Below, piece by piece: positions 4,764 through 43,464 of a stretch of DNA of 64,000 bases; positions within the stretch are counted from its first letter, which is position 1, and each line of letters starts with the position of its first letter. Origin of the DNA: a virus; IMG/VR virus record IMGVR_UViG_3300042691_039251, positions 25,679-89,678 of that record. One strand, written 5' to 3'. The notes under the pieces were generated by a model, which was not told the DNA's origin, did no database searches, and saw nothing but the letters and a program-made list of their open reading frames with translations. Made by a program: the position numbers and the translations under genes.

Positions 4764-4847
4764 GGCCTGGTGGAGAAATTGGTAGACTCGCCATCTTGAG
4801 GGGGTGGTTCCAGCAATGGAGTGAGGGTTCGAATCCCTCCCAGGTCA
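4764..4847 (+). tRNA. tRNA-Leu (anticodon GAG)
   Basis: Folded by eye: acceptor GGCCTGG/CCAGGTC with one G-U pair, short D arm, anticodon stem CCATC/GGTGG with loop TTGAGGG (anticodon GAG, 4798-4800), a long variable arm (TCCA/TGGA) as expected for class II tRNAs, T arm GAGGG-TTCGAAT-CCCTC, discriminator A. CCA is not encoded. It reads CUC/CUU codons. Confidence 0.92.
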
Positions 4848-4852
4848 CAGAT

Positions 4853-4928
4853 CGTAGGGTAGAGCAGATGGTAGCTTGCGAGGCTCATAACCTCGAGGTC
4901 GTGGGTTCGAGTCCCACCCCTGCAACCA
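4853..4928 (+). tRNA. tRNA-Met (CAT), initiator type
   Basis: Anticodon stem CGAGG/CCTCG with loop CTCATAA (CAT at 4886-4888), T arm GTGGG-TTCGAGT-CCCAC, discriminator A, encoded CCA (4926-4928). The first acceptor pair is a C-A mismatch (4853 with 4924) and the D stem has A11-T24. Both are hallmarks of bacterial initiator tRNAs rather than elongator tRNA-Met or tRNA-Ile(CAU). Of the three consecutive G-C pairs usual at the base of the initiator anticodon stem, two are present and the third is A-T. Confidence 0.88.
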
Positions 4929-4929
4929 A

Positions 4930-5003
4930 GGTCTTGTAGCTCAGTTGGTTAGAGCGCTTCCTTGACATGGAAGAGGTCACCGGTTCGAATCCAGTCGAGA
5001 TCA
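4930..5003 (+). tRNA. tRNA-Val (anticodon GAC)
   Basis: Acceptor GGTCTTG/CGAGATC pairs with two G-U wobbles. Anticodon stem CTTCC/GGAAG with loop TTGACAT gives anticodon GAC (4964-4966). The T loop TTCGAAT is normal, but the T stem ACCGG/CCAGT carries one C-A mismatch. Discriminator A; CCA not encoded. It starts two bases after the CCA of the preceding tRNA, so the cluster is surely co-transcribed. Confidence 0.88.
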
Positions 5004-5026
5004 CATTTTATTCCTTGAAAAACCGA

Positions 5027-30500: not shown

Positions 30501-31803
30501 AGGCGGAACTTCTGGTTGGGTTATTTTTGAAAGAAATGGAAAACAGCTTTATCTGAATGCAAACTATTCGGATCTCAATTTATATGCTCAAGTTTCTCCC
30601 CTATCATCTCATAATATGGGATTGTCACTTTCTGCCAGAGAAGTCGTTGAAGATCTCTATCTAAACACTTCAGGCAATGTAGGAGTAGGTACAGGTTCAC
30701 CTGATAGAAAGCTACATGTTTATACTGGAGCTCCAACCGGTGCTACAGGCTCATCAGCCAATAGTGCAATACTAATAGACAGTAACGGTAACCAATACTT
30801 AGAATTCAGGACGAGATCAGACAGTACCGGTATTATGCAAGGTCTGCTCTTCACCGACAACGGTAGAAACGGGTTCATGGGCTTCAAAGAATATACGGCC
30901 GCTGCTGCCAACACTTACGGAGAATCTATTCAGTTCGCAATCCAAGATTTTTCAGGTTCTGATGCAGGTAGTGGATTTTGGTGGGGTACTACGACAGATG
31001 CAGCCAACGGTATCACGACCCCGAGAATGTTCCTCAGAAGCAACGGTAACCTCAATCTGGGATATAGCACCGATCAGGGTTATAGACTCGCCGTGAGCGG
31101 TACAACTTATATCTCTAGCAGTTTCTCGGTCAACACCGCTTCTTATTCCACTACCTTTGGCGACGCTGGAAGTTCTTTAATTAAAGGTTACTCTTCGGAC
31201 GGTTACACTGCAGCTTTCTACGGGCCGATTGGTACTAATCTCACGAATCCTTTTAGAGGAGGGCTTGTCATGGCAGACACGACTGCCCTCGCTGCTAACG
31301 TCGGAGGCCAGATCGCTTTAGGTTACAAGTACGATGGCAACGAGATCACTACAGGTGCCATCATTAAGCAGTACAAAGAGAACGGTAGCAGTGGGCACTA
31401 CGGATCAGGTCTTTATATTATGGTCAGAAACACTGGGGAAGAAATAAATGTCAAATTCAACCTCAATCCTTCAGGTTCTCTCACAGTCAAAGGTGATCTC
31501 ATCGCTTATGGATCCCCTTCAGATGCTCGTCTTAAGAACATCAAAGAGAAGATCCAAGATCCGATCGGCATCTTGAAGAAGATCAACGGCTACCGATTTG
31601 ATTGGAAGAAAGAAGATCTCGTACTCAAGCTCAAAGAAGACATAGGAGTCATCGCTCAAGAAGTCCAAGAAGTTCTCCCGGAGCTCGTGAGGCTGAATAA
31701 TGACGGCTACTATTCAGTGAGAGAAAAGGGACTCATCCCGATTCTCATCGAAGCGATCAAAGAACTCAATCAGAGAATTGAAGATCTCGAAAGAGATAGA
31801 TAA
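27550..31803 (+). CDS. Collagen-like tail fibre with S74 chaperone, paralogue 4
   Basis: 1417 residues and the only copy starting with ATG; the start lies inside the 3' end of paralogue 3. Gly-X-Y region about 66-282, with the longest GTS/GSS run. After [10 protein letters not shown], shared with paralogue 2, comes a beta-rich part with [19 protein letters not shown], unlike the other copies. Middle repeats of [17 protein letters not shown] type. The S74 domain from about 1318 is the most divergent: [12 protein letters not shown] keeps the Ser-Asp dyad, and [16 protein letters not shown] is conserved. Confidence 0.93.
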
Positions 31804-31828
31804 GCAAAGCAAATCTAGTTTTGGCCGG
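31794..31828 (+). repeat. Fibre leader element, copy 4
   Basis: AGATAGATA at the end of paralogue 4, then GCAAAGCAAATCTAG and the TTG start at 31821. The CC of GCCAAA is reduced to a single C, so the start-codon stem seen in the other copies is weaker here. Confidence 0.55.
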
Positions 31829-34634
31829 ATACCGCATATCGAACACATCGGGCATTGCCCTTTCCACTGACAACGAAGGAATCAGCATTCCTACCGCGAA
31901 CGGGACTTCTGGTCTCAAGACCGCGGGCGTTCCTACGGGATCTCTCATATTTAGCACGAGTGACAACCAGCTCTACTCTTTCAACGGAACGAGCTGGGTC
32001 CGAGCTTCCACCTCAGGCAGCGCAGGAACTAGCGGTTCCTCAGGCAGCGCAGGAACTAGCGGTTCTTCGGGAACTGCTGGAACTTCAGGCTCTAGCGGAA
32101 CAGCTGGGACCAGTGGATCTAGCGGAACCTCGGGAACTGCAGGAACTAGTGGAACCACCGGTCCGATCGGTCCTCAAGGGCCACAGGGACCTAACGGCCC
32201 ACAGGGTTTTACGGGTCCACAAGGTGCAATCGGGCCGCAGGGAAACTCTGGACCGCAAGGAACTGGAGGCTCTAGCGGAACAGCTGGGACCAGTGGATCA
32301 AGCGGAACAGCCGGAACTAGTGGATCTAGCGGAACAGCTGGAACTAGCGGTACGAGTGGTACGAGCGGAGCTCAAGGGCCGCAGGGCAACCAGGGGCCGA
32401 TCGGGCCACAGGGTTCGACTGGGCCTCAAGGAGCTCAAGGGCCACAGGGATTCCAAGGACCGAGCGGATCTAGTGGAACTAGTGGGGTTTCAGGTGCGTC
32501 AGGTACTAGTGGAACGTCTGGAACTTCTGGTTCTTCAGGAAATAGCGGGACTTCTGGGTCATCAGGGACAAGCGGAACATCAGGCTCTAGTGGAACAGCA
32601 GGAACTAGCGGTATTCAGGGACCTCAAGGTCCTATCGGACCACAGGGCAACACAGGTCCTCAGGGTCCTCAAGGCCCTCAGGGTCCTCAAGGCCCTCAGG
32701 GGCCAGGTGGTGGACAAGGACCTAGCGGCTCATCAGGGACAAGTGGTGTTTCAGGCGCATCAGGAACCAGCGGTACTAGTGGAACGAGTGGTGGACAGGG
32801 CCCAGGTGGTTCAAGCGGAACCTCGGGAACTAGCGGAAACAGCGGAACTTCCGGGTCATCAGGAACATCTCCAGATGCTGCTTTATACGTAGCAAAGGCC
32901 GGTGATACGATGACTGGCCAATTGATTATAGGTGCAGGCGGTATTGGGATGCAGAGAACGCAGAACAATAACGGAATTTGGTTCAATTCAGGCTCTGATA
33001 CAAATCATATTTTATGGAATGACTACTATGGAGGGCCAACAACAAGAACGGGTTCACCTGGCGGTTTTGATGGAATAAAATGGAATACGTATAGAGGCAT
33101 TCACATTAGAGGTGGAGCAGCAGGAGCTTATAATTGTATCGTAGTAACGAATAGTTCAGGAGCTGAAAACGATCACACTGTTTCTTTGTATGCTGCAAAT
33201 GTGCTTAGGCTTCAGACAACAACGAGTGGAGTTAACATTTCGGGTAATCTTGTAAATACAGGGACAGTTACAGCAACATCTACGGGAGTAGATGGCACTT
33301 TTGCAAACGCTTTTATTGCACAGTATTCGGGTAATAATGCCGAAACGAATGCTATCCAAACGGCTGTTTCTTCTGCAGCTACACAGAGTGGATTTAGGTT
33401 TCAAGTAAGCGATGGCGGAGGCTCTTCGGCAAGAACGAGTGTAGTTGATTTTTTACGAGATAGGGCTAATTTCTATACTCGGCTTCAGGCAATCGGTGCT
33501 GCCGTACAAACTGAAGGTTTATTAAATATAAGCAACACCTACGCTAGCGGAGGTGTTTATTATCCCGCAGCAAAATTCAGAAACACTCGAGGAGACCACA
33601 GTTACGGAATCGTATCTGAATTTTCAACTGGTTCCACAGGTGGTGACAGGGCTACAGTTTTATTTTACAGCGATTCAGCTGCTCACAGCTGGCAAGTAGG
33701 CCAAGTAACAGCAGCCTGGGGAAATGGAGACTCGTTTGGAATCGGTTATAGAGCTAATAATGCACCGAGCACATTTTCTAATTGGCCAACTAATTACTTT
33801 ACTATTGCTACTGGAGGCAACGTAGGTATCGGAGTTACTAATCCCCTGGCTAAACTAGATGTATCGGGCAGCATATATGTAAGAACAGGAAACGCATTAT
33901 ATACAGATTCAATAGCAGGATATAGCGTGGGTGTTGTCTCTCTAGCTTCAGCTACTAATTTCTTGGTGCCTTCAGGACGTATTACAATAGGCACAGAAAA
34001 CACTACAGACGGTAGACTTCAAGTTAGGGGTGCAGGAGTTGCTGATGCGACAACTACTTATGGTATTATTCTTGATAGAGGGACAAAAATCGCATGGACA
34101 AATACTGGAAATGCTAGTACAGGAGAGTACATATATTCTCAAGCCGACAGCCCCTATGCTGTAACTATACACTCAGGCGGCTATAATGCTCTCGCATGTC
34201 CAAACACGAGTCATGTGTATATTAACTATGAAGCAGGAACTTGCTCGATAGGCAGCACATCATTCAGCACTTCATATAAACTTTATGTGACAGGCCAAAT
34301 TTATGCTACTTCTGACATAACGGCATATTCTGATAGGAGAAAGAAAGAAAACATCACCACCATAGACAATGCTCTCGATAAAGTTTCAGGCTTAAGAGGT
34401 GTGTTCTATAACAGAATAGATGATGAATCTAAGAAAAGAAATCTCGGTGTCATTGCACAGGAAGTATTAGAAATAGTGCCAGAAGCAGTTTCTTACGCTG
34501 AGGATACAGACGAATACGGAGTGAAATACGGTAACCTGGTCGGACTTCTCATTGAAGCTATCAAGGAACAACAGGCGACGATCGCTTCTCAAGGTGAACG
34601 AATAAACAGCTTGGAAAAACTTTTGAAATCTTAA
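31821..34634 (+). CDS. Collagen-like tail fibre with S74 chaperone, paralogue 5 (shortest)
   Basis: 937 residues, TTG start. It has the longest Gly-X-Y region (about 66-348), in which GSS/GTA and GPQ blocks alternate several times, with GVSGAS interruptions; it ends SPDAALYVAKAGDTMTGQL, a phage-fibre transition. The middle is shorter than in its paralogues. S74 domain from about 832 ([39 protein letters not shown]). The first 25 codons are almost identical at DNA level to paralogue 2, showing recent duplication or recombination. Confidence 0.93.
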   Translation: MAGYRISNTSGIALSTDNEGISIPTANGTSGLKTAGVPTGSLIFSTSDNQLYSFNGTSWVRASTSGSAGTSGSSGSAGTSGSSGTAGTSGSSGTAGTSGSSGTSGTAGTSGTTGPIGPQGPQGPNGPQGFTGPQGAIGPQGNSGPQGTGGSSGTAGTSGSSGTAGTSGSSGTAGTSGTSGTSGAQGPQGNQGPIGPQGSTGPQGAQGPQGFQGPSGSSGTSGVSGASGTSGTSGTSGSSGNSGTSGSSGTSGTSGSSGTAGTSGIQGPQGPIGPQGNTGPQGPQGPQGPQGPQGPGGGQGPSGSSGTSGVSGASGTSGTSGTSGGQGPGGSSGTSGTSGNSGTSGSSGTSPDAALYVAKAGDTMTGQLIIGAGGIGMQRTQNNNGIWFNSGSDTNHILWNDYYGGPTTRTGSPGGFDGIKWNTYRGIHIRGGAAGAYNCIVVTNSSGAENDHTVSLYAANVLRLQTTTSGVNISGNLVNTGTVTATSTGVDGTFANAFIAQYSGNNAETNAIQTAVSSAATQSGFRFQVSDGGGSSARTSVVDFLRDRANFYTRLQAIGAAVQTEGLLNISNTYASGGVYYPAAKFRNTRGDHSYGIVSEFSTGSTGGDRATVLFYSDSAAHSWQVGQVTAAWGNGDSFGIGYRANNAPSTFSNWPTNYFTIATGGNVGIGVTNPLAKLDVSGSIYVRTGNALYTDSIAGYSVGVVSLASATNFLVPSGRITIGTENTTDGRLQVRGAGVADATTTYGIILDRGTKIAWTNTGNASTGEYIYSQADSPYAVTIHSGGYNALACPNTSHVYINYEAGTCSIGSTSFSTSYKLYVTGQIYATSDITAYSDRRKKENITTIDNALDKVSGLRGVFYNRIDDESKKRNLGVIAQEVLEIVPEAVSYAEDTDEYGVKYGNLVGLLIEAIKEQQATIASQGERINSLEKLLKS

Positions 34635-35624: not shown

Positions 35625-35659
35625 AGATAGATAAGCAAAGCAAATCTAGTTTTGGCCGG
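35625..35659 (+). repeat. Fibre leader element, copy 5
   Basis: AGATAGATA, GCAAAGCAAATCTAG and the TTG start at 35652, nearly identical to the copy at 31.8 kb. It lies in a non-coding gap after the LamG gene and resembles the last codons of a fibre gene. Confidence 0.55.
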
Positions 35660-38600
35660 ATACCGCATATCAAATACATCTGGGATCGCCCTCTCCACTG
35701 ATAACGAGGGCATCAGCATTCCAACCACCGCGAACGTCGCAGGTCTCAGGACCGCAGGAGTCCCAACTGGGTCTCTAGTCTACGCTGTCGCAGATTCTCA
35801 GCTCTACGCCTTCAATGGAACGAGCTGGATCAAAGCCGACACGAGCGGCACGAGTGGAACTTCAGGCTCCAGCGGAACCGCTGGAACTTCGGGAACGAGC
35901 GGCTCGTCTGGAACGAGCGGAGCTACCGGAACGAGCGGTACTTCAGGAATCACCGGACCGCAGGGTCCACAGGGACCGATCGGGCCACAAGGAGTCCAAG
36001 GTCCACAAGGTCCACAGGGGCCGATCGGACCACAGGGATCTCAGGGGCCTAACGGCACTTCAGGGACGACAGGTACGAGCGGATCTAGTGGAACTGCCGG
36101 AACTTCAGGCAGCAGCGGAACTGGTGGAACTAGCGGAACTTCGGGCAGCAGCGGTACTTCAGGGACTAGTGGTTCAAGCGGAACTGCTGGAACATCAGGC
36201 GGCATCGGTCCTCAGGGGCCGACCGGACCACAGGGAAACCAGGGACCTATCGGAACTGGTGGAACGAGCGGAACTTCAGGCGGAATTGGACCACAGGGAC
36301 CACAAGGTCCTCTCGGACCTCAGGGCTCGACTGGGCCGCAAGGTTTACAGGGACCGCAAGGTCTTCAAGGTCCGAACGGCACGAGTGGAACTAGCGGTTC
36401 TTCGGGAACAAGCGGGACATCGGGTTCTAGTGGAACTTCGGGAACTAGTGGATCGAGCGGAACTGCAGGGACGAGCGGAGGGCAGGGACCGAGTGGAACT
36501 AGTGGAACGAGCGGAAACAGCGGTTCTTCAGGCACTAGTGGAACTTCAGGAGGGCAGGGCCCAGGTGGAACTAGCGGAACCTCAGGTACGAGCCCAGCTA
36601 GCCAGGTAACAGGTAGCGGAACTAGCGGTCAAGTTTCTTTTTGGACTGGAACTAATTCTCAAGCCGGCGATAATAATCTGTTCTGGAATAATACTGATAA
36701 GAGATTAGGTATCGGAAAAGCTGGAGCTGACGCTAGGTTAGAAGTTTACGCTGGTACTAAGCCTCAGATAAGGGCAAATGGTGGTACTGCGATGGGAGGC
36801 GGCATCGAATGGTATACTGAGTTGTCAGGCACAGACAGAAGAAACTGGTCTTTTTTGACTGAAGACGTCATATCTGGTGATTTCAATCTTTTACGGTCAT
36901 CTTCAGCAGGTGCTGCTCCTTCTATAGTGACTCTAGCTTTTCAAAGGACAGGATCTGCTGAATTCAAAAGTGATCTACAAACTCTCGGTAAATTAGGAGC
37001 CTCAGACAACAACGGACTTTTTCTGAGAGGCAATTCAGACGTCACACATAAACTATATTACACTTCTACTGGAACAGTTGGCATCATTCTAGAAATCAAT
37101 AATAATTTTAGGATCAACTATTACAACGGAGGATCTCCAAGCACACCTTTTACTTTCAGTACCGGCGGTAATTTAACTGCAACCGGCATTACTACTTCCA
37201 ATCGTTTTATTTCTAGTGCAACAGATAACGGTTCTGGCGAATACTACTTTTTTACTGGGAATGCCGCAGTGAGCAATAACTTGACAATATACGCGTATGC
37301 GAATAGTGTGTACACAAACGCATACAGCAGCTATCATATCAGAGCTAACAACACAGGAGGATCCGGAGGTTACATATTTCTCCACGGTGGCAGCGTGATG
37401 CTGGGGACTGCAGATGCGCCAGTCCTTCACAGCGGAACTCGGGGTGTCGTTATCAAAGGTTCTGCTCGTGGCATTCTGGAGCTCTGGGATGCTACTTCGG
37501 GTAAGTCTGTATTTCAAAATGTCGGCGGCGATACCTATATTGGACAGCTCGATAAAGGCACCGGAGCAGGCAGCACTTTCTTGCTGGTTAACGGAAACGG
37601 TTCAACCGCAGATGTAGCTTTAACTCTCACATCAACAGCAGCGGCCACCTTTGCGAGCACTCTTAGAACCAACGGTAACGTTGGAGTAAGAGTGACACCA
37701 TCATCAGCGAGCGATCAGTATCTGACGACGGGAGATGCAGGCATAGCTTACTCTAATACGTATTTTGGAACAGGTATGGTTCGTATCGGAGGAGGCTCGG
37801 ATCACGTAGATAATACAGTTCTTTCTGTGGCGCCAGGTGTCGTAGTTTTTGATAGACCTGGCATCTCGGGCGGTGCATTGAAGATCACCGGCACCGGACA
37901 GATACTGATGGGCACTACCGCAGCTCTACAGTCTAATGAAAAATTAGCCGTAACTTCAAGCACAAACACTCCAATCATTGCTCAATTCACAGGCGGCAGC
38001 ACCAGCGGGTGGGCAGCCAAGTTTTGGAACAACGGCACAACAGGTGACAATCTCATAGCTGAATTTTTAACTGAATCCTCTCTTACGGCCAGAGGATCTA
38101 TTAGATATGACAGAAGCGGTGATAGACTCAATATAGCTGGCGCTGGAAGCGGCTTATATTTCACAGGGACAGCTGCAGCCTTCTACACGACTACGGCCAA
38201 TGACAACGAAGGCACTCTAAAATACGAAAACGGTAATACTGGCACAGGCGGAGCAACGAATGCTCAGTTGCTCGGCAAGTCTAAATTCGGCACTGCTCAG
38301 TTCATGGTTTGGGAGAACTACGGTATTCGTTTTGGTATGAGATCTACTGCTAACAGCGGTGCAGGCAGCATTTATTTCACTACAGGTACTGATGCAGTGA
38401 AAATGCTGATAGACAACGCTGGAAGCGTAAAATTCGGCAGTAACAATAGCACAATAATCGGAGCAGACGGTGGTTCTGGCTACATTTACTCGTATTCTTC
38501 GGGCGATCCTAAAATCTACATTGAGGCTAATGGTACTGTAGCTTTTTTGAATCCAACTGGTGTATTCATTGGTACTACTACTAGATGGAATAATGAGAGA

Positions 38601-39533
38601 TTCGGTATACAAATAACGAACACAAACAACTGGACAAACATACCGTCCATGATAAGGCTTACGAATTTTACTAGTGGAGGTATAACTAAGATCACATTCA
38701 CTGACAGCTCTATCATTGACGGTTGGCTGGGTATGGTTCCTAGCGCTGCAGCTAAAAGCTATTTTGCAATGGGCTTTGCCGGATATACTGAGCAAGGCTT
38801 TAAAGTTTATCAAAACGGTTACGCTTATGTTCAAAACAGACTAGGCGTGAACGTAGATTATGATTCATTAGGATGGAAATTACAGGTTGCAGACGTAGGC
38901 GCTAATATATCAGGAGGTGAAGCCATTTCAACCAGCACGATGAAAGGAGTCATGATAGAAAACACTAACAACGGTAATGAATCTATTGGAGTTTGGTTTA
39001 GAACAGGAAGCAATCACCTCTCTGGAATATCAGCTCAAAGAAATGACTCTGCTTCTACGTGGGGAACTGATCTTAGATTCTATACTCACCAAAACGCTAC
39101 TTCTAGCCTGACTTCTGCCTTCCAAAGAATGATCATCACTTCTGAAGGGGCGATGGGACTTGGCGTCACTCCAACCAACACTGGTGGGAGATTCGAAGCT
39201 TCTAATGACATCGTTGCATATTCGTCTTCTGATATTAGATTCAAAAAGAACGTGACTGAAATAAAAGAGCCTCTTCAGAAAATCTCCAAAATTAGAGGTA
39301 TCTCTTTTGATTGGATAGAGATGGAAGAATTCCATGGTAACAGCGGTCACGATGTCGGTGTCATTGCACAAGAAATCGAAGAAGTCCTTCCAGAAATTGT
39401 GACTACTCGAGAAAGTGGATACAAAGCAGTCAAATACGAGAAGATCGTACCTCTCCTCATCGAAGCGATCAAGGAGCAACAAGCTACGATAGCCTCTCTC
39501 GAGGCCCGGATAAATATGTTGGAATCAAAATAA
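35652..39533 (+). CDS. Collagen-like tail fibre with S74 chaperone, paralogue 6
   Basis: 1293 residues, TTG start. N-terminal module 1-65 ([14 protein letters not shown]). Gly-X-Y region about 66-313, with GTS/GSS and GPQ/GPI/GPL blocks, ending [18 protein letters not shown] as in paralogue 3. Long beta-type middle. S74 domain from about 1187 ([41 protein letters not shown]) and a short coiled-coil end. Last member of the array; followed by an unrelated unknown gene. Confidence 0.93.
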
Positions 39534-40068: not shown

Positions 40069-40084
40069 TTCAAGATCAAGGTAG

Positions 40085-40118: not shown

Positions 40119-40156
40119 AGCCTCCCTTGAAAAAAGGTCGAAAAAAAATGAAACCT

Positions 40157-40188
40157 TTTTCGGCCACCCAATAAAATACTTAGTTCTT
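40157..40188 (+). promoter_or_regulatory. Phage-type promoter for a non-coding transcript
   Basis: TTTTCG (40157-40162), exactly 18 bases, TAGTTCTT (40181-40188). Each box differs by one key base from TTTTCT and TATCTTTT. No coding frame of useful size follows before 40581, so the expected product is an RNA beginning near 40192. Confidence 0.5.
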
Positions 40189-40189
40189 T

Positions 40190-40567
40190 GGAATAATTAA
40201 CAAAAACCTTGATCTTGAAGCGGCTGAGAGAGCTACATCAACTACTATGAGCAAGGAAGGAGCTTAGGCTTCCTCCAAAAAATCTTCATAGCGGCGACAG
40301 CGAAGAAGAACCACTGGTCTAAAGTCGTGGCCATCGGGAGCCCTAACCGAAACCCTCTCTTAGGAAATTCTCAGGATTAACTCATATTCAAACCGAAGCG
40401 GCGAAAAGAGATACTTCTAATTGGACTGAAAAACACTCTTCTCGAAAATCCTCGGCTTGACTTCTTTGAAAAGGGCTGCTGAACAGTGTAGAGACACTTC
40501 TGCTTTCCGTTCTCTTGGGTCTTGACGATACTTTCGGCGAGGCCCTTTTCTTTTTCCGCCGCTTTTT
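40190..40567 (+). ncRNA. Candidate structured non-coding RNA upstream of the RNA ligase-Ro60 operon
   Basis: About 375 bases with no convincing coding frame, starting after a promoter match and ending in a GC-rich stem plus TTTTT. Helices seen: CTATGA (40245-40250) / TCATAG (40286-40291), enclosing GGAAG (40255-40259) / CTTCC (40269-40273); AGTGT (40485-40489) / ACACT (40494-40498); and AAGCGGCG (40396-40403) with CGCCGCTT (40557-40564), which would bring both ends of the 3' half together before the T run. The closing stem, 3' T tract and position two genes before a Ro60 homologue recall bacterial Y RNAs. No tRNA-like module was identified by eye, so Y RNA identity is inference. Confidence 0.45.
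40535..40567 (+). terminator. Possible terminator of the non-coding RNA
   Basis: CGGCG (40535-40539) pairs with CGCCG (40557-40561), 17-base loop, followed by CTTTTT. It competes with the long-range AAGCGGCG/CGCCGCTT pairing and overlaps the next promoter. Confidence 0.45.
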
Positions 40568-40577
40568 ACTATCTTTT
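40546..40577 (+). promoter_or_regulatory. Phage promoter TTTTCT-N18-TATCTTTT
   Basis: TTTTCT (40546-40551), 18 bases, TATCTTTT (40570-40577), then only ACT before the ATG at 40581. The predicted transcript would start at or next to the start codon. Drives the small gene, RNA ligase and Ro60 homologue. Confidence 0.7.
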
Positions 40578-40580
40578 ACT

Positions 40581-40775
40581 ATGATACACGTAAAATTCAG
40601 AGACACCGATCCGGACACCGGAATCATCACCCAGGACGAGGTGATAGTAATGAGCGAAAACCCCGACCGAGCCACCTGGGCCAAGATGACAATTGAAAAA
40701 GACTGGTTCGATCACAACCCTGACCACAACCGAGAATTCTACTTATTTGACACAGAAACAGAACAGGAATTCTAA
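40581..40775 (+). CDS. Small acidic protein, first gene of the RNA ligase operon
   Basis: 64 residues from the ATG at 40581, chosen because it follows the promoter by three bases; earlier in-frame ATGs lie inside the non-coding RNA. Sequence MIHVKFRDTDPDTG then DRATWAKMTIEKDW, acidic and compact. No family recognised. One base separates its stop from the RNA ligase start, so it may act with or regulate that enzyme. Confidence 0.65.
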   Translation: MIHVKFRDTDPDTGIITQDEVIVMSENPDRATWAKMTIEKDWFDHNPDHNREFYLFDTETEQEF

Positions 40776-40776
40776 T

Positions 40777-41832
40777 ATGGAAAGAAAATTAGCAAGCATC
40801 CAAGTGATCAAGGAGATCCTTCCCATCGAAGGAGCTGACGCGATCGAACTCGCAGTGGTCAACGGCTGGAAAGTCGTGGTAGCCAAAAATGTCGGACATC
40901 AAGCAGGCGACTACGTAGTCTATTGTGAGATTGATTCATTCTTGCCCATCAGGGAAGAATTTGAATTTCTCAGAAAGTCTTCTTATAGGAAGATGGGGGA
41001 GCAGGAGGGTTTCAGGTTGAGGACGATCAAGCTCAGAGGGCAAGTCTCCCAGGGACTCATTCTTCCAATGTCAGTCTTCGGAGATTTTAGTTGGACTGCT
41101 TACGAGGGTCTGGACGTCACAGAGAAATTAGGCATAGTAAAATATGAACCTCCGGTGCCGGCAGCTCTCGCAGGTGTGGCCAAAGGTCTCTTTCCGAGCT
41201 TCCTCCGAAAGACAGATGAGGAACGCATTCAAAACCTCGCTTCAGACTATGAAGAAATGCAAAAGCACTCTTACTACATCACTGAAAAGCTCGATGGTAG
41301 CTCAGCGACCTTTTACTATAAGGACGGTGAATTTGGAGTCTGTAGCAGAAACTTAGAGCTCCTCGAGACAGAGGAAAACACTTTTTGGAAAGTGGCTCGA
41401 GAGCTGAACCTCGAGGAGAAAATGAAGTCCCTCGAAAAGAATGTTTGTCTCCAAGGAGAGCTGATAGGAGAGGGGATCCAAGGAAATCCTTACAAGCTGA
41501 AGGGTCAGATAGTAAAGTTCTTCAATGCTTACAAGATCGACGATGGTGAGTACTACGATTTTCTCTCAATGGCAACTCTGCTCGACTACCTCGGTTTGGA
41601 AACAGTCCCGGTGTTGAACACGAACTACGAACTTCCACCCACCATCGAAATACTTCTCAACGATGCTGATGGAAAATCAAGACTGAACGATAATGCAGAC
41701 CGAGAAGGACTCGTGATCAGAAGCCATGATAGAAAAATATCATTCAAAGCAATCAGCAACAAGTTCTTGCTCAAGGAAGACGACAGGCCTTCCAAGGGGG
41801 AACGCTTAAACTGGGAAAACACTAAAAACTAA
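40777..41832 (+). CDS. RNA ligase, DRB0094/Rnl5-like
   Basis: 351 residues from the ATG at 40777, just after the preceding stop. N-terminal half (1-130) is an OB-like domain (SIQVIKEILPIEGADAIELA, GDYVVYCEIDSFLP, LRTIKLRGQVSQGLILP), as in Deinococcus Rnl5. The nucleotidyltransferase domain follows: motif I EKLDGSS with adenylated Lys171, motif IV EGLVIRS (about 310), motif V FKAISNKFLLK (about 325-335). Family members use ATP to seal RNA nicks or 3'-OH/5'-P ends. It precedes a Ro60 homologue by nine bases, implying a joint role in RNA repair or quality control. Confidence 0.88.
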   Translation: MERKLASIQVIKEILPIEGADAIELAVVNGWKVVVAKNVGHQAGDYVVYCEIDSFLPIREEFEFLRKSSYRKMGEQEGFRLRTIKLRGQVSQGLILPMSVFGDFSWTAYEGLDVTEKLGIVKYEPPVPAALAGVAKGLFPSFLRKTDEERIQNLASDYEEMQKHSYYITEKLDGSSATFYYKDGEFGVCSRNLELLETEENTFWKVARELNLEEKMKSLEKNVCLQGELIGEGIQGNPYKLKGQIVKFFNAYKIDDGEYYDFLSMATLLDYLGLETVPVLNTNYELPPTIEILLNDADGKSRLNDNADREGLVIRSHDRKISFKAISNKFLLKEDDRPSKGERLNWENTKN

Positions 41833-41841
41833 ACCAACTAT

Positions 41842-43464
41842 ATGTCAAGACTAACTCCTTTTTCAGACAAGAAACTCGCGGATCACGAACAATACCGTGA
41901 AGAGAGAGTAGAGAATTACATGGGCGGAATGAGCTACCGATTAGGTCCTCTGGAGACTCTAAGAATCGTGGCCGCAAGTTCCATCTTCGGCGAGCCACAG
42001 TACTACCGAGACGGCATCGGAGCTGAGAAGGCTCTAAAAAAGGATGCCAACGTTTTAGAAGTCTCGATCTTCGAAGATCTCGTAAAAGACAAGAGAACAG
42101 TCGCCGAAGTCTTTACCGAAGCGATCGACAGAGCATTAGATGCTGATTTTAAAGCAACGTTGGATCTTGCTCTCACTCTAAGGACTGAGTACATGATGAG
42201 GTTGAACCCATCAGTGATCTGGATCAGAGCCTCTCTCCATCCAAAGAGAGCAGAGTTCAACGAGAAGAATCCGGGTTACATGAAGGAGATTGGAAAAAAG
42301 ATCGTATTGAGGCCGGACGACGTCACTAACCAATTCGATTATTATGCATACGTGAAAGGATCGAAGAAAGGCCTTTCCTCCCTCGTGAAGAGAACTTGGG
42401 CAGAGACTCTGGAGAGCTTCTCTCGCTACCAATTGAACAAATACAAGGGCAAGAAGCTGATAGATCTCGTGAGGATCTCACACGCTCATTCTGATGACAT
42501 TACTGAGCTCGTAAAAACAGGCACTATCAAGGTCGAGGAGTCCGAGAAGACTTGGGAGATCTTGAGATCTGAGGGAAAATCTTGGAAGGAGATCTTGGAA
42601 ACGATCAAGATCCCTCACATGGCCCTCCTCCGCAACCTCCGCGGAATCTTCAAAGAAATAGATAACAGGGAGATCTTGGAAAAAGTTCTAACTGATCTAA
42701 AAGCTGGAGTTCCTTACGGAAAACAGTTCTCCTTCAGATATTGGTCGGCACACAAAGCAGTCTCTTCTGAAGACGGAGTGAATTTCAAAATACCGATCCT
42801 CGATGCTCTCGAAGAATGCATTGATCTAGCGGTAGAGAACTCACCCAGATTAAGAGGCCGAGTAATGTCTCTCTGCGATAATAGCGGATCTGCATGGGGA
42901 AGCTGCAATTCAGAATATGGATCGGTCACCGTAGCAGAGATCGCGAACCTCTCGGCTTTGATCACCGGAGCCAATGCCGAAGAAGGCCACGTCGGAGTCT
43001 TTGGAGATAAATTAGAAACTCGTGGAGTTTCCAAAAGGAACGGCATCATGGCCCAACTGGAAGAATCGAATGCAATTGGCAACACGGTCGGACAGAGCAC
43101 TGAAAACGGGATCTGGCTCTTCTGGGACAAAGCAATCAAGAACAAGGAGCACTGGGACACCGTCTTCATCTACTCTGATATGCAGGCCGGCACCGGAGGC
43201 CTCTACGGAGTCAATGCTGAAGACTATAAAGAGTTCAGACATAAAGACGGCAGACACATCGACGTCCTTGCTCTGGTCCAAAAATACCGAAGAGAAGTAA
43301 ACTCAAGAGTGAACGTCTTTTCGGTCCAAGTTGCAGGTTACGACAATTCAGTCCTTCCGGGTAACATTTACCGAGGAGCAATTCTCACAGGTTGGACAGG
43401 CAAAGAATCACTCTACGCCCAGGAGATCATCAAAATCTGGGACGAAATAGAAAATATAAAATGA
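41842..43464 (+). CDS. rsr: Ro60/Rsr homologue (TROVE domain plus vWA domain)
   Basis: 540 residues, the full length of Ro60 (about 530-540). Residues about 20-330 have the TROVE pattern of helical HEAT-like repeats: LETLRIVAASSIFG, LTLRTEYMMRLNPSVIW, LVKRTWAETLESFSRYQLNKYKGK, LVRISHAHS, IPHMALLRNLRGIF. Residues from about 335 form a von Willebrand A domain with a MIDAS motif DNSGSAWGS (346-354) and later FIYSDMQAG. In other organisms Ro60 is an RNA-binding ring that sorts misfolded or damaged RNAs, usually with a Y RNA. Here it follows an RNA ligase and a candidate structured RNA. Stop overlaps the next small frame (ATGA). Confidence 0.88.
   Translation: MSRLTPFSDKKLADHEQYREERVENYMGGMSYRLGPLETLRIVAASSIFGEPQYYRDGIGAEKALKKDANVLEVSIFEDLVKDKRTVAEVFTEAIDRALDADFKATLDLALTLRTEYMMRLNPSVIWIRASLHPKRAEFNEKNPGYMKEIGKKIVLRPDDVTNQFDYYAYVKGSKKGLSSLVKRTWAETLESFSRYQLNKYKGKKLIDLVRISHAHSDDITELVKTGTIKVEESEKTWEILRSEGKSWKEILETIKIPHMALLRNLRGIFKEIDNREILEKVLTDLKAGVPYGKQFSFRYWSAHKAVSSEDGVNFKIPILDALEECIDLAVENSPRLRGRVMSLCDNSGSAWGSCNSEYGSVTVAEIANLSALITGANAEEGHVGVFGDKLETRGVSKRNGIMAQLEESNAIGNTVGQSTENGIWLFWDKAIKNKEHWDTVFIYSDMQAGTGGLYGVNAEDYKEFRHKDGRHIDVLALVQKYRREVNSRVNVFSVQVAGYDNSVLPGNIYRGAILTGWTGKESLYAQEIIKIWDEIENIK

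What the first reader, a model, noticed from the sequence alone, without database searches (positions are those of the whole stretch)
40119..40580. Non-coding region of about 460 bases with its own promoter and hairpins
In a genome with almost no gaps this stretch has no believable coding frame, yet it has a promoter match (TTTTCG-N18-TAGTTCTT), nested helices near 40245-40291, a hairpin at 40485-40498, a long-range 8-bp GC pairing between 40396 and 40564, and a T run. The two halves could be two RNAs or one.
Basis: seen in the sequence. Interest (0 to 1): 0.7.

Follow-up and report, generated by a model that had tools for sequence, protein, structure and literature searches.

The report
Two phage Y RNAs beside Ro60
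The gene-free stretch in this bacteriophage very probably makes two small structured RNAs of the "Y RNA" kind that serve the phage's own copy of Ro60, the ring-shaped RNA-handling protein also known as a lupus autoantigen, and close relatives of these RNAs lie next to Ro60 genes in dozens of other phages.

Summary
The non-coding stretch is real and is two RNA modules, not one. Both modules share a basal stem (YYGA-AGCGG-stem-UAC ... UUC-UCRG) found just upstream of, and on the same strand as, a Ro60/TROVE gene; in the window that gene starts 1.26 kb downstream, after a 64-aa ORF and an RNA ligase. A covariance model built without the window still finds the second module (59.8 bits, E 6e-14). 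All 30 viral Ro60 loci with upstream sequence, and 18 of 29 cellular-genome loci, carry matches; all 87 matches lie on the Ro60 strand. Compensatory changes are abundant (163 double-change cells against 59 in shuffles). In Bacillus phage G and other relatives the same stem encloses a permuted tRNA that Rfam's YrlA model recognises. The window's Y1 carries a different, non-tRNA-like head; Y2 is a headless hairpin of about 75 nt. Relatives also show a boxA-like leader and a terminator. Phage Y RNAs as such are not new; this covarying, modular, partly headless set is a new variant. Ro60 binding and function are inferred, not shown.

The parts
40148..40177 (+). weak sigma-70-like promoter candidate ATGAAA-N18-TAAAAT in front of the RNA unit
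   Evidence: 9 of 12 matches, but 0.8 such sites expected by chance. Some relatives have a clearer upstream element (TTGAAAC...TATATTTGC; sequences). Inference only.
   Evidence: G[TC]TCTT within 70 nt upstream of the first module in 24 of 29 loci, 1.11 expected from shuffles; boxA consensus GYTCTTTAANA from PMC5725501 (passage). The window copy departs at 2 of 11 positions; 13 of 29 loci match fully (read by eye from the strings).
40209..40380 (+). Y RNA 1 (long form): basal stem 40209-40218/40371-40380, internal loop AGCGG (40219-40223)/GAAATTC (40364-40370), upper stem 40224-40232/40355-40363, conserved UACAUC 40234-40239, variable head between
   Evidence: MFE fold; consensus of 22 long forms found de novo by RNAalifold and counted; R1 match 24.0 bits E 0.0015 and R2 match 21.4 bits E 0.0022, both models built without this copy.
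40387..40459 (+). Y RNA 2 (short, headless form): basal stem 40389-40396/40452-40459, internal loop AGCGG (40397-40401)/AAAATCC (40445-40451), upper stem about 40402-40410/40436-40444, UACUUC 40412-40417
   Evidence: R2, built without the window: 59.8 bits, E 6.1e-14. R1, which includes it: 63.9 bits. Covariation; own fold z -1.72.
40517..40555 (+). intrinsic terminator: hairpin 40517-40545 followed by TTTTCTTTTT
   Evidence: -16.4 kcal/mol, z -3.93, 0 of 200 shuffles fold as well; hairpin of -13 kcal/mol or lower plus T run after the last module in 26 of 30 loci.
40581..40775 (+). 64-aa ORF of unknown function
   Evidence: No Pfam or PHROG match.
40777..41832 (+). RNA ligase, like Naegleria gruberi RNA ligase, between the RNAs and Ro60
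   Evidence: PF21189 + PF09414; PDB 5cot E 1e-77; phrog_968 E 1.1e-83; not found in any of 72 other Ro60 loci.
41842..43464 (+). Ro60/TROVE protein (540 aa), proposed partner of both RNAs
   Evidence: PF05731 24.6 bits, cut-off 23; predicted fold's 13 PDB matches at E <= 1e-3 are all Ro60/TROVE proteins; phrog_850 E 5e-37.

Best explanation
The stretch encodes two Y RNAs of a phage Ro60 ribonucleoprotein. One transcript (promoter, boxA-like leader, Y1, Y2, intrinsic terminator) is made ahead of the p64-RNA ligase-Ro60 genes. Each module folds so that its two ends form a stem interrupted by a conserved asymmetric internal loop (AGCGG opposite about 7 nt ending UUC), capped by an upper stem and a conserved UAC[A/U]UC. 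By homology with bacterial YrlA this basal stem is the Ro60 docking site (inferred). Y1 carries a large head that would be the effector arm, a tether for another protein or RNA. Y2 has only a short loop and would chiefly occupy and gate Ro60. Shown by computation: structure, covariation, linkage to Ro60, homology of the stem to YrlA-type RNAs in relatives. Inferred: transcription start, processing into two RNAs, Ro60 binding, and a role in RNA quality control or repair together with the adjacent ligase.
For: R2 (window left out) finds Y2 at E 6.1e-14. 36 short forms: 82.2% of cells paired (59.8% shuffled), 163 double-change cells (58.9 +/- 6.7 shuffled; at most 70 in slid controls); nearly the same fold (16 of the 18 pairs) arises de novo. 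22 long forms: 99 double-change cells against 35.2. All 87 model matches over 63 Ro60 loci lie on the Ro60 strand, 86 upstream of Ro60, median gap 201 nt. In a scan that started from the DNA pattern alone, 24 of 29 model-positive loci contain Ro60 against 1 of 91 model-negative loci (p 2.6e-19); in two further scans 16 of 30 against 0 of 203. Phage G and the relative G003 carry copies with this stem around a permuted tRNA recognised by Rfam YrlA (36.2 bits E 1.2e-6; 34.3 bits over the full model 1-114). In a 4.2-Mb bacterial genome (150 best candidates scored) the only match lies beside Ro60. boxA-like leader in 24 of 29 and terminator in 26 of 30 loci.
Against: No Rfam Y RNA model reaches E <= 10 in the window. 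Even the phage G and G003 copies stay below YrlA's gathering score of 69 bits. The window's Y1 lacks a tRNA-like domain. Single-sequence folding of the window copies is only moderately better than shuffles (z -1.73 and -1.72). The ligase and p64 separate the RNAs from Ro60 here but not in the relatives searched. Seven more distant TROVE/Ro60 phage loci have no clear match (best E 0.3, partial). Eleven of 29 cellular-genome Ro60 loci lack a match. Three virus records with modules have no TROVE gene; they are fragments of 19-39 kb. No expression or binding data for this phage.
Confidence: 0.87

Rival explanations
1. One long RNA or a cis-acting leader: the stretch is a structured 5' UTR controlling p64, ligase and Ro60 (attenuator or Ro60 autoregulation) rather than trans-acting RNAs.
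For: It lies directly upstream on the same strand. A terminator between RNA and genes would fit attenuation. A 14-nt inverted repeat (40069-40082/40206-40219) and the CCGCCGCTT complement at 40556-40564 offer alternative pairings in the window.
Against: The alternative pairings are not conserved: CCGCTT in 1 of 20 loci; upstream complements elsewhere at most 8 nt. In relatives extra copies lie kilobases from Ro60 or inside tRNA arrays (phage G 412772-412840; G003 33455-33594; L102). The tRNA-like heads point to trans function.
Confidence: 0.07
2. Decoy or repair function: the Y RNAs are sponges that protect tRNAs from host anticodon nucleases or present cleaved RNAs to the ligase, rather than tethers and gates for Ro60.
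For: RNA ligase next door. Relatives carry several Y RNAs whose heads mimic different tRNAs, within tRNA arrays. The authors of PMC7790460 propose competitive inhibition of an anticodon nuclease for YrlA (passage).
Against: The window's Y1 head is not tRNA-like and Y2 has no head (for Y1; length of Y2). The ligase is absent from the other Ro60 loci, and PF09414 was found in only 8 of 30 Ro60-bearing virus records. Compatible with, not exclusive of, a Ro60 RNP.
Confidence: 0.25
3. Decayed coding sequence or chance structure.
For: Weak folding z-scores; several short ORFs, for example 98 aa on the minus strand.
Against: Strong covariation and locus linkage; no ORF of 45 aa or more in the homologous stretch of L003, L004 and L006.
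Confidence: 0.02

Closest known systems
Bacterial YrlA Y RNA (Rfam RF02553; Salmonella, Mycobacterium)
   Same: 5' and 3' ends form a basal stem with an internal loop; Rfam consensus gaAUGCu ... CUAc ... UuG ... uc aligns with GA-AGCGG ... UAC ... UUC-UC in G003; linked to Ro60; some phage relatives carry the permuted tRNA head.
   Different: Loop AGCGG rather than AUGCu; window Y1 has a non-tRNA-like head, Y2 none; scores below the family cut-off; phage-encoded tandem copies; boxA-like leader.
Salmonella rsr-yrlBA-rtcBA RNA repair operon
   Same: Y RNAs, Ro60 and an RNA-joining enzyme in one neighbourhood (operon as described in PMC7790460, passages).
   Different: Ligase is of the Naegleria gruberi RNA ligase type, not RtcB; phage genome; order is Y RNAs, p64, ligase, Ro60.
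Deinococcus radiodurans Rsr-Y RNA-PNPase (RYPER)
   Same: Ro60 fold match 2nvo; Y RNA as tether and gate is the model borrowed here (PMC4726728 and PMC6181284, passages).
   Different: No nuclease partner identified; no shared tether sequence tested.
Putative Y RNAs of Listeria phage CKA15 (PMC12282133)
   Same: Highly transcribed non-coding RNAs near an Rsr-like gene on the same strand; the authors suggest Y RNAs (passages).
   Different: Model R1 finds nothing in the corresponding part of the related phage P100 at E <= 5; P100 gp165 matches DUF2828/DUF7788, not TROVE.

Membership tests
Bacterial Y RNA (broad sense) | encoded beside a Ro60 orthologue | tested here: met
   Ro60 starts at 41842, same strand; 30 of 32 viral Ro60 loci searched have matches, and the two without (L005, L136) start inside the Ro60 gene.
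Bacterial Y RNA (broad sense) | ends paired into a stem with a conserved interruption | tested here: met
Bacterial Y RNA (broad sense) | bound and stabilised by Ro60 | not testable with these tools
   Needs RNP purification or binding assays.
YrlA class (RF02553) | tRNA-like head (T arm, acceptor, D arm in permuted order) | tested here: not met
   Absent in window Y1 and in 8 other long forms of its type (0 of 9); present in relatives such as L164, L102, L171, L224. The window RNAs are therefore not filed as YrlA.
YrlA class (RF02553) | Rfam gathering score (69 bits) | tested here: not met
   No RF02553 match in the region at E <= 10; phage G copy 36.2 bits, G003 copy 34.3 bits.
YrlA class (RF02553) | basal-stem sequence | tested here: inconclusive
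   Same layout and GA/UC closure, loop AGCGG versus AUGCu (alignment). A published Ro60-binding motif is recalled only; the 2014 paper is not held.
Ro60/TROVE protein | TROVE domain and ring-plus-vWA fold | tested here: met
   Pfam above cut-off; 13 of 13 PDB matches at E <= 1e-3 are Ro60/TROVE (model pLDDT 76.7); invariant D346, S348, S350 (DxSxS) in 20 sequences.
boxA antitermination signal | GYTCTTTAANA near the transcript start | tested here: inconclusive
   13 of 29 loci match fully; the window has 9 of 11 positions. The consensus is for gamma-proteobacteria; NusB/E binding untested.

The most novel reading that the evidence does not exclude
Phages use one Ro60-docking stem as a plug onto which interchangeable RNA heads are fixed: permuted tRNA bodies differing from copy to copy in T arm, acceptor and D arm (three clear and one partial in one tRNA array), a separate non-tRNA head family (window Y1), or no head at all (window Y2). 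In many of these phages they are transcribed from boxA-led, terminator-ended units like small rRNA operons. The phage thus equips a single Ro60 ring with a set of adaptors or decoys that protect, sort or repair tRNA and other structured RNA during infection.
Probability: 0.35. Interest if true: 0.82.

Novelty: new variant of a known kind. Interest (0 to 1): 0.64.

Why it matters
What Ro60 and Y RNAs do outside Deinococcus is largely open (PMC7790460 says bacterial Ro60/Y RNA function had been studied only there; passage). A phage family with tandem, covarying Y RNAs, including minimal headless ones, gives a natural dissection of the RNA into docking stem and head, and supplies a model that finds members Rfam misses. 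It also offers a cultured test system: Bacillus phage G, where seven copies are predicted around gp540. If the heads are adaptors or decoys, it links Ro60 to the phage-host conflict over tRNA and RNA repair.

Tried and rejected
Rfam on the window at gathering and permissive thresholds gave only the three tRNAs and chance-level hits, best of them eukaryotic. blastn of the stretch against annotated phage genomes gave only short chance matches, best E 2. Thermodynamic folding alone was not decisive. A tRNA-like head in window Y1 was tested and not found. The RNA ligase as a conserved partner was rejected: none in 72 other Ro60 loci; PF09414 in 8 of 30 virus records, 6 over the cut-off. R1 in part of Listeria phage P100: no match. 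Literature: the primary bacterial Y RNA papers are not held; a search for Thermus phage plus Ro60 found none, although PDB 9l5y is a Thermus phage phiLo Ro60. Statements on what is or is not in print rest on searches of an open-access subset only; papers were seen as search listings or passages, none in full. Not used: metagenome contigs, structure search against viral models, a third RNA model.

Rows dropped: one search left out 12 loci held (L127 = the window contig, and L129, L132, L133, L137, L147, L148, L155, L158, L160, L163, L165, same contigs as, or near-duplicates of, loci used). One search kept 78 instances after removing identical copies. A2 (36) and A3 (22) were picked by hand from those 78 by length. 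The 3' partners were found by maximising pairing, so one search gives the control: the own stem beats all 20 shuffles in 65 of 78 instances, hence 13 of 78 do not. The terminator scan has no shuffle control for loci other than the window.

Full report
What is there. Between the stop of a 160-aa ORF (40068) and an ATG at 40581 lies a stretch without a convincing gene. Downstream on the same strand come a 64-aa ORF, an RNA ligase and, at 41842-43464, a protein with a TROVE match just above Pfam's cut-off. A model of that protein (pLDDT 76.7) matches only Ro60/TROVE proteins among its 13 PDB hits at E <= 1e-3, including Deinococcus Rsr (2nvo), the Ro autoantigen complexed with RNA (1yvp) and a Thermus phage Ro60 (9l5y). 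The record is a virus of 89,678 bases. 28 of the 29 start sites I looked at lack a Shine-Dalgarno-like sequence, which from general knowledge suggests a Bacteroidota-type host.

Two modules. The stretch contains a repeated element, GAAGCGG-N10-TAC[A/T]TC, at 40217 and 40395 (23 nt, 78% identical), and nowhere else in the window on either strand. Ro60 loci from viral contigs and from some bacterial genomes show the same element upstream of Ro60. Each element starts a stem whose 3' strand follows either about 65-80 nt later (short form) or about 150-240 nt later (long form). In the phages closest to the window, the long form comes first and one or two short forms follow, as in the window.

Structure. 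For 36 short forms, two helices (8 and 10 pairs) are supported by 163 cells with both sides changed, against 58.9 +/- 6.7 in shuffles and at most 70 with slid partners. RNAalifold, unaided, finds 16 of these 18 pairs. For 22 long forms, the two stem helices plus two head helices give 99 double-change cells against 35.2. The internal loop is AGCGG on the 5' side and about 7 nt ending UUC on the 3' side; GA/UC closes the lower helix almost without exception, while the pairs below it change freely (CC/GG, UU/AA, CU/AG).

Specificity. Model R1 matched 87 places at E <= 0.5 over 63 Ro60 loci, all on the Ro60 strand and 86 upstream of it, median gap 201 nt. It hit 30 of 32 viral loci; the two misses (L005, L136) begin inside the Ro60 gene. 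It hit 18 of 29 cellular-genome loci. Many of these copies trained the model (36 sequences, one of them the window's). A model made without the window (R2) finds Y2 at 59.8 bits, E 6.1e-14, and Y1 at 21.4 bits, E 0.0022. Starting instead from a DNA pattern, 29 of 120 loci have an R1 match and 24 of those 29 contain Ro60, against 1 of the other 91; two further scans gave 16 of 30 against 0 of 203, though some contigs recur between scans. Seven distant TROVE/Ro60 phage loci gave no clear match (best E 0.3, partial).

Link to known Y RNAs. In Bacillus phage G one copy (L195 1720-1879) encloses a T arm, a closed acceptor stem and a D arm in permuted order. Rfam's YrlA model scores it 36.2 bits, E 1.2e-6, model positions 23-86, and ARAGORN sees no tRNA there. 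In G003, the genome of the closest Ro60 relative, a copy between tRNA-Met and tRNA-Lys aligns to the whole YrlA model, 34.3 bits, with stem against stem. Both are below the family's gathering score of 69. L102 holds several such copies among tRNA genes, each with a different T arm and acceptor. The basal stem in the window is therefore best read as a Y RNA docking stem. The window's own Y1 has no such tRNA-like head, nor do 8 other long forms of its type (0 of 9), so it is not filed as YrlA.

Transcription unit. A box G[TC]TCTT lies within 70 nt upstream of the first module in 24 of 29 loci (1.11 expected). By eye, 13 of 29 match the boxA consensus GYTCTTTAANA given in PMC5725501 (passage); the window has GTTCTTTGGAA. 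A hairpin of -13 kcal/mol or lower with a T run follows the last module in 26 of 30 loci; in the window it is 40517-40545 plus TTTTCTTTTT, better than 200 of 200 shuffles. The promoter itself is not settled.

How it may work. By analogy with Rsr-Y RNA-PNPase (passages), the stem docks on the Ro60 ring, Y1's head would recruit a partner, and Y2 would gate or stabilise the ring. The neighbouring ligase, of the Naegleria gruberi RNA ligase type, makes RNA repair attractive, but no other Ro60 locus examined has it, so it is not a general partner. All of this paragraph is inference.

Against the reading. No Rfam Y RNA hit in the window, modest folding scores, no expression or binding data, 11 of 29 cellular-genome loci without a match, and three module-bearing virus fragments in which no TROVE gene was found.

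Prior knowledge. Phage Ro60 and phage Y RNAs are mentioned in print: jumbo phages with TROVE proteins (PMC7824862, passage), phages reported to have YrlA (PMC7765460), Y RNAs in mycobacteriophages and a suggestion for Listeria phage CKA15 (PMC12282133), one YrlA in a prophage (PMC8190616). I found no description of this AGCGG-stem family, the headless forms or the boxA-like leader in the searches listed under Tried and rejected, which cover only open-access papers.

Noticed in passing
window 40069-40082 and 40206-40219: Perfect 14-nt inverted repeat; one arm overlaps the 5' strand of Y1's basal stem, the other lies just after the preceding stop codon. Longest comparable complement in 19 relatives is 8 nt.
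   Followed up: partly
window 40407-40418 and 40490-40501: 11-of-12 repeat AGAGAYACTTCT downstream of Y2; perhaps the remnant of a third module.
   Followed up: no
L102 5900-10300, minus strand: At least six modules among tRNA genes; four have tRNA-like heads (three clear, one partial) with differing T arms and acceptors, and no TROVE gene was found in the 39-kb record.
   Followed up: partly
L195 (Bacillus phage G) 1728-9370: Seven predicted modules around gp540, one inside the tRNA/tmRNA cluster; no RNA feature annotated at these places.
   Followed up: partly
L459 (Listeria phage P100), minus strand just upstream of gp165 (31571-33091): By eye, three tandem short hairpin-like repeats sharing ACAGCAAWTACTA precede an Rsr-like gene; not matched by R1. 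Could be another Y RNA class.
   Followed up: partly
L006 12373-13506: A second, divergent TROVE relative (24% identity) in the same contig.
   Followed up: no
A3 long forms, for example L140 3526-3747: Conserved head with a CGUAA-loop hairpin and, in several, a GGTTTAATTCAC stretch resembling conserved 16S rRNA (recalled); no Rfam match at E <= 1.
   Followed up: partly
window 35652-39533: 1293-aa collagen-repeat protein ending in a Peptidase_S74 chaperone domain, probably a tail fibre.
   Followed up: no
window 4764-5004: Three tRNA genes, Leu, Met and Val.
   Followed up: no
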